DNA of 53,553 nucleotides from Synergistaceae bacterium (GTDB lineage Bacteria > Synergistota > Synergistia > Synergistales > Aminobacteriaceae), in NCBI GenBank assembly GCA_017439345.1, contig JAFSJJ010000026.1:1-53553 (forward strand), in the 5' to 3' direction. Of this stretch, positions 23,995 through 34,395 are shown piece after piece. The notes under the pieces are model-generated. The model had not been told where the DNA came from, did not search any database, and was given only the letters and a program-made list of their open reading frames with translations. Position 1 is the stretch's first letter. The number at the start of each line of letters is the position of its first letter. Position numbers and translations under genes: made by a program.

Positions 23995-25266
23995 TTAAAT
24001 TATTGGTATGTCTACTTCCTTTAAGTCTTTGAGTTCGTCTTCATCGTCCTCGTCGTCTTTGTTTCCTTCAGATTTATCATCACTGTCTCCGATGTCTTCT
24101 TCAGGATGTCCTGAATCCAATGCATTCCCGTCTTCAGTGATCTCGTTAGAGTCTGCCTGATCTGATTCTGATAGGGGAAACCCGGCATCAGGCTCCTCCG
24201 TTTCTTGCACTTCTTGCAGCGCAACAGCTTCAACAGGCTCTTCGGGTGCAGCGAGTTCTATTAACGGCTCGTCAGAAGGCGAATCAAGTTCCGGAATATC
24301 AGAAAGTTCTGACTCTGACTCTGAGTCTTGGCCGTCGGACTCTACTGACTCCATAATTTCACCGTCATCAATTATTTCTTCGGTCTCAGGGTCATCCGGC
24401 AGCGAATATTCCGGCTCGTCAATAACTGGAGTCTCATGAGTCTCTTCAGGCTCTGCAGGTTCTACAGGATTGACAGCTTCAACACGATTTACTGCTTCGC
24501 TTTCTTGAGGCTCTTCAACAGGAGCTTCAACGGGTTCACCCGGCAATTCTCCGGACTCTAAAGACTCTTCGCTTTCGTCAGGAGCTTCCATCATTAGACC
24601 TGACTGCGACTCAGACTCAGGCTCTGACTCTGAATGTTCGGGTTCAGGCTGCGAGTCTGCGTTAGATTCAAGATTCTCTTCTATAGTCTGAAATGCTTCT
24701 GTCAAAACGGGGTCTGCTTCTACATTAGTCGGCGGTATTAAATCTTCAACGATATTAGCGTTATTTACTTGAGATTCAGACTCAGACTCAGAGATTAAAG
24801 GCTTTACATCGTGAACGTCATCTTCATTAACAGCTGAAGACACAGTTACAGTTTCGTCTGCCGGGAAGTTGTCAAATTCCTTGCTGTTCTGAATGACGGG
24901 GATAAACACAGCGACTATTTTAACGTTTTTATTGCCGTCCGCAGCGTCATTAATTGCCTTCATGACCTCTTTATACAGCCATGAATGATGTTCGCCGTCT
25001 CCCTGTTCGATTACGTTAATTGCTTTGACCTGAGGTTCTGCACTCTTAGAGAATCTTTCGGGGTCAAGTTTAATTTTCTCGCTCTCTTGTCTCTCTGGTG
25101 ATAAAGACTCTGAATAACGCTCTACTACTTGACGTTCGATATTTTTTGCCCGCGCTCTGACTCTGGGTCTAGGCTGCAAAGGTTCTTGACCGTTTTCCCG
25201 TCTCCATTCTGCCTCGTGCTGATCGATAATAGCATGAACGTTTTCGAGTCCCTTAAATATTCTCAT
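23995..25266 (-). CDS. Highly acidic, disordered protein paired with a ParA-like ATPase
   Basis: I do not recognise a family. The first 130 residues look ordered and basic (MRIFKGLENVHAIIDQHEAE, several Arg-rich helices, then KIVAVFIPVIQN). Residues from about 135 to 405 are almost entirely Glu, Asp, Ser and Pro, with runs such as SESESES and SEPESESQS. The end DLKEVDIPII is hydrophobic and could be a short docking motif. The start lies 14 bases inside the ParA-like gene, so the two are translationally coupled and probably act together. No membrane segment is seen. An acidic tail on a ParA partner suggests a scaffold or cargo adaptor, but this is speculation. Confidence 0.75.
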   Translation of the reverse strand: MRIFKGLENVHAIIDQHEAEWRRENGQEPLQPRPRVRARAKNIERQVVERYSESLSPERQESEKIKLDPERFSKSAEPQVKAINVIEQGDGEHHSWLYKEVMKAINDAADGNKNVKIVAVFIPVIQNSKEFDNFPADETVTVSSAVNEDDVHDVKPLISESESESQVNNANIVEDLIPPTNVEADPVLTEAFQTIEENLESNADSQPEPEHSESEPESESQSGLMMEAPDESEESLESGELPGEPVEAPVEEPQESEAVNRVEAVNPVEPAEPEETHETPVIDEPEYSLPDDPETEEIIDDGEIMESVESDGQDSESESELSDIPELDSPSDEPLIELAAPEEPVEAVALQEVQETEEPDAGFPLSESDQADSNEITEDGNALDSGHPEEDIGDSDDKSEGNKDDEDDEDELKDLKEVDIPII

Positions 25267-25942
25267 CGCCGTTCTCTTCCTCTTTTCTATCCGTCCAGAC
25301 TTCGTTAATATCCGAAATTCCGGAACTCATTTTATCTGCTGCTGCAAGAATCTTCTCATAGAGTCTCTCGAAAGGCTGCCTTGATGCTGCTGTCAGTCCT
25401 GTTGACCATACGCGCCCTGAAGTTATGTTATACGGAATGCGTTTATGCAGCGGCAAATCTTCTGCAACCGGATAATCACGCTCTGATATAATCTGATTGG
25501 CTATTTTCGTCATCACTGCGTTGTCATAGCCGACTTTCACCAGGGGGAGCTGAGCCTTGCCTTTGCCGAATTTCTCTGCTGTAGAGTACATGACTCCCAG
25601 ATTAGAAAGCGAGAAGAAATCAGGCCTTACCGGTACAATCGTAATATCAGCGAATTCAATTGCCTTTCTTGAAACGTCCTCTAAACTCGGCGGACAGTCA
25701 ATAACAATCCATTCTTCGGGAGCGTCTGCGTCAGAGTCCTCTAATTCAGATTTAATGCGCAATGACTCATGAAAATAATTCTTCATGAAACCCAGTGCAT
25801 CCGAAAAGTTTCGCGACGGGTCTAAATCAACTGCAAGAACTTTATTATGTCTGACAAGGGCTATCTGAGCAAGAATAACTGCAAGAGTTGTCTTACCGAC
25901 TCCGCCCTTACGATTCAAAACAGCGACTGCAATTTTTGACAT
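25253..25942 (-). CDS. ParA/MinD-type P-loop ATPase
   Basis: A 229-residue protein with a deviant Walker A KGGVGKTT at 12-19, VDLDPSRN at about 38-45 and Walker B IDCPP at 81-85. These place it among ParA/Soj/MinD-like ATPases that position cargo such as plasmids, chromosome origins or protein clusters. It lacks an N-terminal DNA-binding domain and a clear amphipathic membrane tail. No parB lies nearby, which argues against ordinary chromosome partition; its partner is the acidic protein overlapping its 3' end. A DMT transporter and trpF lie just upstream on the same strand. Confidence 0.85.
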   Translation of the reverse strand: MSKIAVAVLNRKGGVGKTTLAVILAQIALVRHNKVLAVDLDPSRNFSDALGFMKNYFHESLRIKSELEDSDADAPEEWIVIDCPPSLEDVSRKAIEFADITIVPVRPDFFSLSNLGVMYSTAEKFGKGKAQLPLVKVGYDNAVMTKIANQIISERDYPVAEDLPLHKRIPYNITSGRVWSTGLTAASRQPFERLYEKILAAADKMSSGISDINEVWTDRKEEENGDENI

Positions 25943-25978: not shown

Positions 25979-26836
25979 TTACTGCGCTCTGATTATTATA
26001 ATAATCGATAATAGCACAATTGCAAAACCTGTGAAATTTATTACGTGTACTGCTTCATTATATATTATTAACCCTACAAGGACTGCTGTAACCGGCTCAA
26101 TCGAAGCTATGACAGGTGCGAGACTCGTGTTATTTATTTTTCTCAATCCGTTATAATACAACAAATATGCTAACGATGTCGGGATTAGTCCATAAAGAAA
26201 GCTCAAGCCCAAAATTTTTATATTACTTAAAGCATAACTTACAGGGGGAACCGTGAATATTCCCAAGAATAATAATGCTGCTAAATAACTATATGCACTG
26301 ATTATAATCGAGTCAATTTTCTCTCCTGCGAGTTTGCCGAACACTGCCGACATTCCATAGCCGAAGCCTGAGCCTAGACCGTAAAGAATTCCTGCAAGTG
26401 ATATATTATCAGAGTCAAATTTTCCTCCTGTTACGGTCAAGATACAGCCCAGAATATTTAACGCTAATGCAAAGAGCTTAAGACTCGAAAACTTCTCGTG
26501 AAAAATTATCCTGCTGGCTATTCCAGTGAAGACAGGCGCACTGTACATTAAGACCGCTGCGACTCCGACTCCGTTGAGCTTGATTGAATTGCTGTAGAAT
26601 ATATTAAATGCTCCCTGTGAGACAAGGCCAAGCAATGCACATGTTAATAAAGTCTTTGAGTCAATCATAAAAACTTTTCTGCCGTGTTTTATCAACGCAA
26701 GGGCTGACATAATTACGAATGCGAATAACATTCTAAGAAAGCTCATTAACTGGACGCTGACTCCCAAAGAGCTTAACTCATTAACGAATATTCCGATTAT
26801 GCCCCATAAAATTCCGGATATAAATATATAGAGCAA
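25979..26836 (-). CDS. EamA/DMT family transporter
   Basis: The 285-residue protein is made of about ten hydrophobic helices arranged as two EamA repeats, with internal similarity such as ILWGIIGIFVNELSS in the first half. Substrate cannot be told from sequence; family members export amino acids, sugars or metabolites. It starts five bases after the trpF stop and probably shares its transcript. Confidence 0.85.
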   Translation of the reverse strand: MLYIFISGILWGIIGIFVNELSSLGVSVQLMSFLRMLFAFVIMSALALIKHGRKVFMIDSKTLLTCALLGLVSQGAFNIFYSNSIKLNGVGVAAVLMYSAPVFTGIASRIIFHEKFSSLKLFALALNILGCILTVTGGKFDSDNISLAGILYGLGSGFGYGMSAVFGKLAGEKIDSIIISAYSYLAALLFLGIFTVPPVSYALSNIKILGLSFLYGLIPTSLAYLLYYNGLRKINNTSLAPVIASIEPVTAVLVGLIIYNEAVHVINFTGFAIVLLSIIIIIRAQ

Positions 26837-26840
26837 TTAA

Positions 26841-27461
26841 TTATTTTCTCCCTTGATTAGCTTCACGGACAGCGAGAATGAATTTCATGACCTTCCTGTA
26901 ATCTTTCACTTTATTTGACTCGACTCCTGAGCTGACGTTCAAAGCAAAAGGTTTTGGATTTACCTGCAATGCATCGTGAATATTTTCCGGAGTCAATCCT
27001 CCTGAGAGAAAGAAATTGCGCCTGACATTGCCTAACAACGACCAGTCGAAAGACTTCCCAGAACCTGCGATGCCTCCGTCCAGCATGACATAATCAGCCG
27101 TTGTGTACATTGCTTTGTCTGCATCGATAGGCTTTGCAACTTTTACAACTTTCATAATCGGACAGCGTATATATTCTCTTAGAGCTGCTATGTATTCCGC
27201 TGTCTCGTCGCCGTGAAGCTGAACCATGTCAAGCCCGGCCGTTTCCATCGTGATAGCTACGTTTCTCAGTGAAGCATTTGCGAAGACTCCTACTGTCTTA
27301 ATTCCCTTTCTCAATTTAGAACGTAAAAGCCCAGCATGTTCAGGAGCTATGAAGTGCCTGCTCTTGGTCGCGAATACGAAGCCTACGAAATCCGGGACAA
27401 GTTCGTTCATTATGCCTATTTCTACTTCGTGTGTTATTCCGCAGATTTTTACTTTTGTCAT
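26841..27461 (-). CDS. trpF: Phosphoribosylanthranilate isomerase
   Basis: The 206-residue TIM-barrel enzyme of tryptophan synthesis shows catalytic Cys7 (VKICGIT) and Asp128 (VMLDGG), plus QLHGDE near 81 and the phosphate-binding FFLSGGLTPENI. It is complete. No other trp gene lies in the window, so trpF is detached from a trp operon. Its upstream gap shows no obvious attenuator or T-box. Confidence 0.95.
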   Translation of the reverse strand: MTKVKICGITHEVEIGIMNELVPDFVGFVFATKSRHFIAPEHAGLLRSKLRKGIKTVGVFANASLRNVAITMETAGLDMVQLHGDETAEYIAALREYIRCPIMKVVKVAKPIDADKAMYTTADYVMLDGGIAGSGKSFDWSLLGNVRRNFFLSGGLTPENIHDALQVNPKPFALNVSSGVESNKVKDYRKVMKFILAVREANQGRK

Positions 27462-27686: not shown

Positions 27687-28605
27687 TTATGCGCCTGTAG
27701 TGCTTTGACTCTGAAGTTTAATGTTTACAGAAGCTGCGAGATTTGCAATTACGTCTTCTGCAAGTCCTAAATTCTTCAGACTTTCAATCCATATAGCCGA
27801 AGATCTGTCCGTTGCCTCAGCCGTTGCTTCAGCCCTTGCCTTAGCTGCTGCCTCTTCGCGAGCGTCCTCAAGTTTGGAACTTTCAAATATCCAATCGTAC
27901 ATATAAATTCTCCTCCATTCTATGCTTGCCTTTGATATTGCTAATCGTCTGGCAAGTTCGTTAATATACTCATCGCCCGGAGTCTCTTTGCCTGTCAGGA
28001 AATCAAGAAATGCCCTTAACTTCGGGTTTACGTCATCAGCTTTACCCTTAGCGTTCAGGAAAATAGTAAATGCCCCGTCATCAAGCGCAAGACTCTTTGC
28101 TTCAGTGCAAATATTCTTGAACGTGTAAATTATGTCTGCCCATCTTAAACGGATCGAACATGCATATAAATATCACATATGAATCAGGAATATTCTTATA
28201 GTGCTTCAGATCCTTTCTGCTCCTGCTCCTGTCCCTGTTCAGGACATCTAGTCCCATTGAAAGCTGATACGCCCTCGAACGTCTTGCAAGGTCTTTATTG
28301 TCCGTCGTCTGAATCTCTATGTCGTAAATTTTCCCGTTGTCTGACTTAGCATATAAATCAAATCGAACTCCGCGCGTTCCTAATGTCTCCTTAATACTCT
28401 TCTGAGCTTCAGGAATGCTGATATAATTTATCTCTATATCAGGCAGAATTCTTCTCATCATTTCAGTGCATAATTTCTCATCGCTCATCACTGCACGAAA
28501 CATGAAATCATTTGCAAGAGTCAAATTCTCCCAGCGTTCTTCAATCGGGATTAGGGCTTCTATGTCCTGTAATATTTTATTTTCAAGTATTTTATCGAGA
28601 GCCAT
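27687..28605 (-). pseudogene. Rpn/YhgA-like PD-(D/E)XK nuclease (putative transposase family), frameshifted
   Basis: The first frame (28605-28102) encodes 167 residues: IPIEERWENLTLANDFMFR, RFDLYAKSDNGKIYDIEIQT (the D...E-x-Q nuclease core) and FICMFDPFKMGRH. There the frame breaks. Removing one of the two A bases of the coding strand at 28130-28131 restores IYTFKNICTEAKSLALDDG and the frame then runs to the stop at 27687, including FLNAKGKADDV and an Ala/Glu-rich helix. The repaired product would have about 305 residues, the usual length for this family. The family cuts DNA and is linked to RecA-independent recombination. One indel may also be an assembly error. Confidence 0.85.
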
Positions 28606-32222: not shown

Positions 32223-32304
32223 AAGAAATTATTATTCTCCCGTGAAAAATTTAGCATATTATAATATTAATATAATTTATTCACCGGAGGCAGAATTTTT
32301 TATC
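32223..32304. promoter_or_regulatory. Divergent promoter region between uvrB and the GmrSD-like gene
   Basis: The gap contains TATAAT at 32260-32265 and again at 32271-32276 on the plus strand, in very AT-rich DNA. Matching -35 boxes are poor. It must serve uvrB leftward and the restriction gene rightward. No LexA-like palindrome was recognised. Confidence 0.35.
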
Positions 32305-34395
32305 ATGAAAGCTGAATCTATATATCTTCTTGTGCATATAATTAACCCCAACGGAAGACTATTCAGGATACCTGTTTATCAGCGAAATTACGACTGGAGC
32401 GAAGATCACTGCAAGAGGCTGCTTGATGACATCGAACGCATTATTAACGGACACCAGCAAAAACACTTTCTCGGCTCTATGGTCTACCTTGCTTCAAATG
32501 ACGGCGGAATGTTCCAGAATTTTATCGTCATTGACGGCCAGCAGAGACTTACTACTGTTATGATTATCTTGAAGGCTCTGTGTGAATGCGCAAAGAAACT
32601 TGATGATATAAACACATTAAATCTTATAACGGGTATTCTTTACAACAGCAACTTTTCTGAATCAAGGCTCAAGTTAAAGGCTTCCATGTCAGACGACAAA
32701 AATTTTGCAGCTCTTCTTGAAGACAGACTTGATGACATCGACAAGGACAGCAGGATACTTATTAATCACGAATTATGCCTTAACCGAATAGAAAAATGGA
32801 CAGCTTCAGGAATTACGACAGGGGAAATTTTGAACGCCCTTCACTTTCTGCAAGTTGTATCGATTACATTGACCGAAGGCGAGGACGACCCTCAAATGAT
32901 ATTCGAGAGCATTAACTCAACCGGACTCGATTTGTCGAACGCTGACTTGATACGCAACTTCTTACTCATGAGCGACCCTGATCAAGAAAGATTATTCAAA
33001 GATTACTGGCTTCCGATTGAACGCAATCTCAAAGAAGTAAATGATTATACGAATCTTAATAACTTTTTCGCGCATTACATGATATTCAAGACAAATTCAC
33101 CTGTTGACAACAATAAATATTTATATCGAAACTTTACGGACTTCTTCAGAAAACAGAATTACACTCACGAGCAGATATTAAGAGAGCTGAAGCCTTTATC
33201 AGAAATATATATGTCATTCGTCAGGCCGCTTAGTAAAGAACAGCAGAAATATCCTTCTGAAGTAATCAAATCTCTTGACGGACTCAGAGTCCTTAAGCAG
33301 ACTACGTTTTATCCGTTTATGCTTCATGTCTTCGATGATTATGAACACGGCGTTATTAATTCTGAAACTCTCTCAAAAGTTATGAAATTTATTCTGTCTT
33401 ATATCCTCCGCAGGGTAGTTTGCAGGGTTACGAGCAATTCATTACGAGGGTTTGCAGCCTCATTGTATTCAAGGGTCTTCAAGGTCGAAGCTAACAAGGC
33501 AAAATATTATGAAGCAGTGAATAAATTTATCTCTACACTTCAGACCAAAGACGCTATGCCGCCGTATGATGACTTAAGGAACGCATTAATCAACGAAGAT
33601 TTGTACTCGCAAAAGGCTCTGTGCAGATTCATTCTGAATGAGATTGAGAACGGGGACTCTAAAGAAATATTAAGCTCTGATAATCTTACAATTGAACATA
33701 TTATGCCTCAGAACTTGAATCCCGAATGGAAGAGAATAATTACAGAAGACGAGCATCAACACTGGCTGCATACTTTGGGAAATCTGACTCTCAGCGGCAG
33801 TAACTCTAGACTCTCGAATAAAAGTTTTCGTGAGAAGCAAATTACATTGCGCGAATCAAAAGCAGTGAAGCTCAATTCGGACGTTATTAATCAAAGTACT
33901 TGGACTTCAAGAGAGATTCAAAACAGGGGCAGGAGACTTGCTAAGATCATAACAGACAGATTCAATACAGAAAAAATCAGTGACCCTGACTTAGCCTTTG
34001 AAGCTATTACGAAAATTACACTTGATGATGACTTTGACAGCGTAATGAGTTCACATCTTGAAGCGTTCGTGTTCGATGATGAGGATTACGTACAGAAATA
34101 TTTTGCGTTAATGCTCGTTGACATAACAAAGCTGCTTGACGAGATAAAGCCCGGTGTACTTGAAACACTTGCTCAGGAAAATTATTCATTCAGGACGGGC
34201 AGCAGAGTCTTTATCACATATGAACCTGCGGCAAACAAACTCAGGACTCCCCGTGAAATCAGAGACGGAATATTTATAGATATAGGCTCGATAGCTGCAA
34301 ATGACATCATGAAATTTATTAGCTCATTATTCGAGAAGTTCGAGGTCAGCAAGTCAAGATTCTATATCCTGATAAATGATAAGACTCACAAATAA
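32305..34395 (+). CDS. GmrSD-like type IV restriction protein (DUF262 + DUF1524)
   Basis: The 696-residue protein joins an N-terminal DUF262 domain (FRIPVYQRNYDW near 20-31; the ParB-like DGQQRLTT at about 77-84; FESINSTGLDLSNADLIRNF) to a DUF1524 HNH nuclease domain (EHIMPQNL near 465; LGNLTLSGSNSRLSNKSF near 490). GmrSD enzymes use NTP to cut DNA with modified bases. About 130 residues after the nuclease form a further domain (KTHK end) that I cannot name with certainty; it may be DUF5655-like. I chose ATG 32305, after CGGAGG, over an ORF start at 32242 that overlaps a -10-like box. No methyltransferase lies nearby, consistent with a stand-alone type IV system. Confidence 0.85.
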   Translation: MKAESIYLLVHIINPNGRLFRIPVYQRNYDWSEDHCKRLLDDIERIINGHQQKHFLGSMVYLASNDGGMFQNFIVIDGQQRLTTVMIILKALCECAKKLDDINTLNLITGILYNSNFSESRLKLKASMSDDKNFAALLEDRLDDIDKDSRILINHELCLNRIEKWTASGITTGEILNALHFLQVVSITLTEGEDDPQMIFESINSTGLDLSNADLIRNFLLMSDPDQERLFKDYWLPIERNLKEVNDYTNLNNFFAHYMIFKTNSPVDNNKYLYRNFTDFFRKQNYTHEQILRELKPLSEIYMSFVRPLSKEQQKYPSEVIKSLDGLRVLKQTTFYPFMLHVFDDYEHGVINSETLSKVMKFILSYILRRVVCRVTSNSLRGFAASLYSRVFKVEANKAKYYEAVNKFISTLQTKDAMPPYDDLRNALINEDLYSQKALCRFILNEIENGDSKEILSSDNLTIEHIMPQNLNPEWKRIITEDEHQHWLHTLGNLTLSGSNSRLSNKSFREKQITLRESKAVKLNSDVINQSTWTSREIQNRGRRLAKIITDRFNTEKISDPDLAFEAITKITLDDDFDSVMSSHLEAFVFDDEDYVQKYFALMLVDITKLLDEIKPGVLETLAQENYSFRTGSRVFITYEPAANKLRTPREIRDGIFIDIGSIAANDIMKFISSLFEKFEVSKSRFYILINDKTHK

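What the first reader, a model, noticed from the sequence alone, without database searches (positions are those of the whole stretch)
23995..25942. ParA-like ATPase coupled to an acidic disordered partner: possible undescribed positioning system
A 229-residue deviant Walker A ATPase overlaps by 14 bases with a protein having a basic ordered head, some 270 residues of Glu/Asp/Ser/Pro and a hydrophobic end. There is no parB, parS or other cargo gene. ParA-type proteins often position non-DNA cargo through a partner, and this pair resembles no named system I know.
Basis: inference. Interest (0 to 1): 0.6.

Follow-up and report, generated by a model that had tools for sequence, protein, structure and literature searches.

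The report
ParA ATPase with acidic disordered partner
A ParA-type ATPase gene and the acidic, mostly disordered protein encoded just after it form a pair kept across one genus of gut Synergistaceae; the second protein matches no known family, so the pair probably positions some still unknown cargo inside the cell.

Summary
The observation largely holds: a 229-aa deviant-Walker ParA overlaps by 14 bp a 423-aa protein with a long acidic tail. Both genes are real (dN/dS 0.0-0.3) and chromosomal, in the order trpF-EamA-ParA-partner. In the genus, 40 of 43 genomes have this ParA. In 37 the partner follows immediately; in the other 3 the ParA itself carries an acidic tail. The partner is absent from 140 other genomes of the order, from plasmids and from phages, and matches no family in Pfam, NCBIfam, PADLOC or PDB. 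On the ParA tree the pair is one clade, so the partner was probably gained once. Related genera have the same ParA alone.

Two details need correcting. The head is not a basic ordered domain: net charge 0, and AlphaFold shows separate helices (pTM 0.27). The hydrophobic end is not conserved. The conserved parts are an N-terminal helix, an 'RFLG' motif, an 'HSWLYNEV' segment and a motif in the tail. The RFLG motif also ends the ParA of one divergent genome.

Best reading: a nucleoid-type ParA whose partner is a multivalent cargo adaptor. Cargo is unknown; microcompartments are excluded. It is a new variant of a known kind. No function was shown.

The parts
25253..25942 (-). ParA/MinD-family ATPase ('ParA1'), 229 aa
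   Evidence: Pfam AAA_31 4.5e-22, CbiA, MipZ; AlphaFold pLDDT 85, pTM 0.85; Foldseek: ParA proteins throughout the top, best TM-scores to TP228 ParF (0.73 query / 0.80 target)
25889..25912 (-). deviant Walker A (R11-K12-G-G-V-G-K17-T18), signature lysine K12
   Evidence: K12, G13, G14, V15, G16, K17 invariant in 34 relatives
25688..25708 (-). Walker B, IVIDCPP (residues 79-85)
   Evidence: D82, C83, P84, P85 invariant
25253..25266 (-). 14-bp overlap of the two reading frames; a Shine-Dalgarno-like AGAGGAAGAG lies just upstream of the partner ATG
   Evidence: same overlap in 25 of 33 loci
23995..25266 (-). acidic partner protein, 423 aa, no known family
   Evidence: no Pfam or NCBIfam hit, no PADLOC hit; one weak PHROG hit of unknown function, E 0.0015; present in 37 of 43 genus genomes, 0 of 140 others in the order
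25177..25266 (-). partner residues 1-30: conserved charged N-terminal helix, consensus MRIFKGLENIHSVID.HE.EWR.EQGE; candidate ParA-contacting peptide
   Evidence: M1, E8, N9, G26 invariant, E20 and W21 at least 90% in 28 sequences; helix 4-25, pLDDT 86-88 over residues 11-30
25045..25068 (-). partner residues 67-74: degenerate copy (LDPERFSK) of the RF motif FSADRFLG
   Evidence: R71, F72 invariant in 28; motif duplicated in L040, L042, L048; also ends the ParA of G015 (4 of 1e6 shuffles)
24856..24987 (-). partner residues 94-137: HSWLY(N/K)EV..AI.DA...K..KI.AVF.PV.QN..EF...P..E segment; helix followed by a hydrophobic stretch; duplicated in several relatives
   Evidence: H94, S95, W96, L97, Y98, E100, V101, K103, A104, P123 invariant; two copies in L039, L040, L041, L048, L061
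23998..24846 (-). partner residues 141-423: acidic low-complexity tail
   Evidence: net charge per residue -0.33, D/E 35%; -0.30 to -0.42 over 29 copies
24670..24741 (-). partner residues 176-199: conserved motif within the tail, LIPPTNVEADPVLTEAFQTIEENL
   Evidence: pattern in 23 of 29 tails, in none of the tails in 200 rounds of shuffling
25979..26836 (-). EamA-type transporter, upstream neighbour in the conserved gene order
   Evidence: conserved synteny
26841..27461 (-). trpF (PRA isomerase), upstream neighbour in the conserved gene order
   Evidence: conserved synteny

Best explanation
A two-component, nucleoid-type ParA spatial-organisation system. The ATPase forms ATP-bound dimers on nucleoid DNA (inferred). 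The downstream protein is its dedicated partner and cargo adaptor: its conserved charged N-terminal helix contacts and stimulates the ATPase (inferred), the RF and HSWLYNEV modules and the tail motif bind cargo or self-associate (inferred), and the long acidic disordered tail is a repulsive spacer like that of PopZ, making the protein a multivalent scaffold (inferred). Shown: gene pairing, a single paired clade, purifying selection, motif anatomy, ATPase fold. The cargo is unknown.
For: ParA fold and catalytic motifs intact, with no C-terminal amphipathic membrane helix seen (sequence; DSSP), which favours a nucleoid over a membrane matrix. Partner always directly downstream, usually overlapping by 14 bp. 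All 40 genus genomes with this ParA have either the partner (37) or an acidic tail on the ParA itself (3: G015, G025, G036). The partner's RF motif ends the G015 ParA, a fusion-type link between the two proteins. The paired forms are one clade (93/88, 92% of bootstraps). Known ParA partners are usually encoded immediately downstream (PMC8262871), contact the ATPase through a charged N-terminus and are otherwise extremely diverse (PMC10241942). Modules are duplicated in several relatives, which suggests multivalency.
Against: No recognisable cargo gene in the neighbourhood; trpF, EamA and an antiporter are unlikely cargo. Genera g22 and g25 keep the ParA alone, so the ATPase can work without this partner. 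The N-terminal element is a predicted helix with net charge about -2 here, unlike the positively charged disordered N-termini described for other partners (PMC10241942). No model of a ParA-partner complex could be obtained. DNA binding of this ParA is not shown.
Confidence: 0.55

Rival explanations
1. The acidic tail is a DNA-mimic or electrostatic governor of the ATPase: it competes with nucleoid DNA for the ParA surface, in cis in G015, G025 and G036 and in trans in the rest. The pair tunes how long ParA stays on DNA rather than carrying a cargo.
For: The tail sits on the ParA itself in three divergent genomes; net charge per residue is -0.30 to -0.42 in all 29 partners while length varies widely, so charge is conserved more than sequence.
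Against: Specific motifs are conserved inside head and tail, which a pure charge effect would not need; the solo ParA of related genera has no tail.
Confidence: 0.15
2. A replacement chromosome-segregation system: the genus lost canonical ParB, and this ParA-partner pair took over.
For: No canonical ParB_N match (E about 1e-27 to 1e-34 in other genera of the family) in any of 43 genus genomes; the best genus hits are 1e-16 to 1e-19 in three genomes. The partner is confined to this genus.
Against: No ParB match at 1e-15 was found in about nine other genera of the family that lack the partner, g25 among them, and G082 has both ParB and the solo ParA, so loss and gain are not coupled. The partner has no DNA-binding domain hit. 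An orphan Soj-like ParA also persists in the genus.
Confidence: 0.1
3. A non-positioning MinD/ParA-type ATPase (like BcsQ, CooC or Get3) that assembles or regulates an enzyme, envelope or flagellar complex, with the disordered protein as its scaffold or substrate.
For: Weaker BcsQ and ArsA profile hits. Flagellar genes lie near the locus in several arrangements: flgE-fliE operon in G000 and G017, fliE/F/G in G025, a FliD-like ORF in most others, a FliR-like ORF in G015.
Against: ParA, ParF and Soj are the better sequence and structure matches. Flagellated relatives outside the genus lack the partner. The flagellar genes differ between arrangements, and G000 and G017 share a clade, so the association may be chance.
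Confidence: 0.15
4. A plasmid-type (type Ib, ParF-ParG-like) partition pair that became chromosomal and may now be domesticated or vestigial.
For: Small ParA without an N-terminal HTH, best TM-scores to TP228 ParF; NCBIfam 'ParA family partition ATPase' is the best but sub-threshold hit (80 vs cut-off 180 bits).
Against: No ribbon-helix-helix or other DNA-binding domain hit in the partner; no plasmid or phage relative of the partner head; conserved chromosomal synteny; strong purifying selection.
Confidence: 0.05

Closest known systems
McdA/McdB (carboxysome and microcompartment positioning)
   Same: ParA followed directly by a partially to largely disordered partner with a charged N-terminus (PMC8262871)
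   Different: No BMC shell gene in this genome or in any partner-bearing genome searched; partner lacks the invariant C-terminal aromatic residue of McdB, is strongly acidic and has no sequence match to any named family
TP228 ParF/ParG (type Ib plasmid partition)
   Same: Small ParA without HTH; best TM-scores (0.73/0.80)
   Different: No ribbon-helix-helix domain found in the partner, no plasmid context; partner is 423 aa and acidic
ParABS (Soj/Spo0J)
   Same: ParA ATPase related to Soj
   Different: No canonical ParB in this genome or genus; partner has no ParB or HTH domain hit
PopZ (Caulobacter polar condensate scaffold)
   Same: Short N-terminal helix for client binding plus an acidic, proline-containing disordered region, net charge per residue -0.28 in PopZ (PMC9512792) against a median of -0.36 here
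   Different: No C-terminal helical oligomerisation region seen; no homology detected; encoded with its own ParA; proline about 11% here against 23-29% in PopZ

Membership tests
ParA/MinD deviant-Walker ATPase family | KGGVGKT Walker A' with signature lysine, Walker B, ParA fold | tested here: met
ParA/MinD deviant-Walker ATPase family | ATP-dependent dimer, nonspecific DNA binding | not testable with these tools
   needs biochemistry
ParABS chromosome or plasmid partition | ParB (or RHH ParG/ParR) DNA-binding partner | tested here: not met
   no such domain hit in 28 partner heads; no PDB profile hit of note; no ParB_N over cut-off in the genome
ParABS chromosome or plasmid partition | parS site near the genes | not tested
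   no parS search was run
McdAB | BMC/carboxysome shell genes in the genome | tested here: not met
   PF00936 absent from G000 and from every partner-bearing genome among the 61 searched; the one genus hit, G019, lacks the pair
McdAB | C-terminal aromatic residue of McdB | tested here: not met
   the 29 copies compared end in I, K, Q, E, D, L, N, R or S, none aromatic (a few of these copies are cut by contig ends)
PopZ | C-terminal helical oligomerisation domain after the IDR | tested here: inconclusive
   protein ends in acidic low-complexity sequence with no Pfam hit; the tail itself was not modelled
ParA cargo-partner (functional class) | encoded immediately downstream, charged N-terminal element, otherwise lineage-specific | tested here: met
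ParA cargo-partner (functional class) | binds and stimulates the ATPase | not testable with these tools

The most novel reading that the evidence does not exclude
A ParA positioning system whose cargo is a new kind of object, for instance a condensate built by the acidic partner itself, arising within one genus: an ancestral solo ParA acquired an acidic tail in cis and then a separate multivalent partner, giving a visible series for how ParA partners are born.
Probability: 0.2. Interest if true: 0.75.

Novelty: new variant of a known kind. Interest (0 to 1): 0.48.

Why it matters
ParA partners are extremely diverse and many ParA proteins remain orphans (PMC10241942). Here one genus carries a well-conserved new partner family, with relatives that show the ParA alone or with an acidic tail fused on. 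That is a natural series for testing how a partner and its cargo specificity evolve, in a lineage that also lacks the standard ParB.

Tried and rejected
1) Head as a ParB, HTH or RHH domain: no Pfam, NCBIfam or PDB profile match; Foldseek of the head model gave 0 matches at E<=10, but that model is poor, so this adds little. 2) BMC cargo: PF00936 absent. 3) Flagella as cargo: FliG is in 36 of 37 genus genomes but also in most relatives without the partner; not discriminating. 4) Replacement for ParABS: ParB loss is not coupled to the pair. 5) RF motif as a genome-wide signal: a DNA pattern hit partner genes in 4 of 12 genomes plus one chance-like site in G025; it missed several true copies, so the negative is weak. 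7) The first alignment for that chain (A3) placed head rows on ParA and was discarded. 9) The tail-motif patterns were chosen after looking at the tails and loosened once, so the shuffle comparison flatters them; the strictest early versions matched 6-12 of 29.

Full report
What is there. The two reading frames are exactly as reported: ParA 25253-25942 (-), 229 aa, and partner 23995-25266 (-), 423 aa, overlapping by 14 bp. The window is contig C21 of a 2.54-Mb genome. The nearest named records are rumen and gut Synergistaceae MAGs, some labelled Fretibacterium.

ATPase. It hits AAA_31 (4.5e-22), CbiA and MipZ in Pfam. NCBIfam's best hit is ParA_partition, below its cut-off (80 vs 180 bits). 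PDB sequence relatives are Soj and ParF. The AlphaFold model is good (pLDDT 85, pTM 0.85), and Foldseek finds Soj, TP228 ParF and other ParA proteins, with the highest TM-scores to ParF (0.73/0.80). Catalytic motifs are invariant in 34 relatives. The C-terminus shows no MinD-type amphipathic helix (sequence; DSSP), so a nucleoid matrix is more likely than a membrane (inference).

Partner. No match in Pfam, NCBIfam or PADLOC; one weak PHROG of unknown function (E 0.0015); no significant PDB relative. Alignment of 28 heads shows three conserved elements: an N-terminal helix (M1, E8, N9, G26 invariant; E20, W21 nearly so), the RF motif FSADRFLG (degenerate here: LDPERFSK), and HSWLY(N/K)EV...KIIAVFIPVVQN..EFE.LP. 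The head model has helices but no confident fold (pLDDT 62, pTM 0.27), and net charge is 0 over residues 1-130, so 'basic ordered head' is not right. With only 28 related sequences the poor model does not exclude a fold. The tail is acidic in every copy (-0.30 to -0.42 per residue) but is not only low complexity: a pattern around LIP...LAEAF..MEEKL occurs in 23 of 29 tails and in none in 200 rounds of shuffling (the pattern was tuned on these tails). RF and HSWLYNEV modules are duplicated in several relatives. The hydrophobic end is not conserved.

Real genes. dN/dS is 0.0-0.08 for ParA, 0.04-0.21 for the head and 0.17-0.34 for the tail, which also has many indels (some synonymous distances are near saturation).

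Distribution. ParA1 is in 40 of 43 genus genomes (G092's only hit is a paralog at 1e-45), the partner in 37, always directly downstream, overlapping by 14 bp in 25 of 33 loci. One copy (G028) reads with stops and may be broken or mis-assembled. The three genomes with ParA1 but no partner (G015, G025, G036) have ParA proteins with their own acidic C-terminal tails; the G015 tail ends in KFPGNRFLGK, the RF motif (4 of 1e6 shuffles). The G025 tail runs off its contig and the G036 tail has an N gap, so their ends, and whether a partner follows, are unknown. The partner is absent from 140 other genomes of the order, plasmids, phages and viral contigs. Orthologous ParA1 at 56-58% identity stands alone in genera g22 and g25.

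Evolution. On the ParA tree the paired forms are one clade (93/88, 92% of bootstraps), solo forms another (98/99); the tail-bearing forms fall near the midpoint root, and G015 is a long branch. So the partner was probably gained once; whether tail-on-ParA came first is not settled.

Context. trpF-EamA-ParA-partner is the conserved order. Flagellar genes lie nearby in several arrangements (flgE..fliE in G000 and G017; fliE/F/G in G025; a FliD-like giant in most; a FliR-like ORF in G015), a weak lead only, since the genes differ and G000 and G017 share a clade. The genus lacks canonical ParB, but so do several related genera without the partner, and G082 has ParB plus solo ParA1, so a swap is unlikely. 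BMC shell genes are absent from all partner-bearing genomes searched.

Mechanism. Published ParA partners are encoded next to the ParA, contact the ATPase dimer through a charged N-terminus and are otherwise extremely diverse (PMC10241942; PMC8262871). By that standard this protein is a good candidate partner, although its N-terminal element is a near-neutral predicted helix rather than a basic disordered one. The long acidic tail resembles PopZ's disordered spacer in charge (PMC9512792), and module duplication suggests a multivalent scaffold. Everything beyond gene pairing, selection, motif anatomy and the ATPase fold is inference.

Verdict. A real, lineage-specific ParA-partner pair with a new partner family: a new variant of a known kind, function and cargo untested.

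Noticed in passing
whole genus (G000-G036, G089-G094): Canonical ParB is missing from this genus and from several related genera, while other genera of the family have it at E about 1e-27 to 1e-34.
   Followed up: partly
L079 (G000:C39:71520-72737): Orphan Soj-like ParA, 406 aa, with a Q/T/P-rich linker and an extra C-terminal region, no parB nearby; conserved in most of the genus.
   Followed up: partly
L067-L069, L071: A second ParA-like protein (34-42% identical to ParA1), sometimes in tandem, sits next to what looks like a citX-like gene (recognised by eye, not tested).
   Followed up: no
L137-L156, cluster 5: Very large FliD-like ORFs (up to 2113 aa) upstream of the antiporter-trpF-EamA-ParA genes in many genomes (identity by eye).
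   Followed up: no
32242-34395 (+): GmrSD-type restriction endonuclease next to uvrB.
   Followed up: no
28102-28605 (-): PD-(D/E)XK transposase-family nuclease, 167 aa, matching only positions 2-118 of a 229-position profile, likely truncated.
   Followed up: no
L062 (G028): Partner gene of G028 is interrupted: its head profile match carries six stops and the long acidic ORF starts inside the HSWLYNEV segment.
   Followed up: partly
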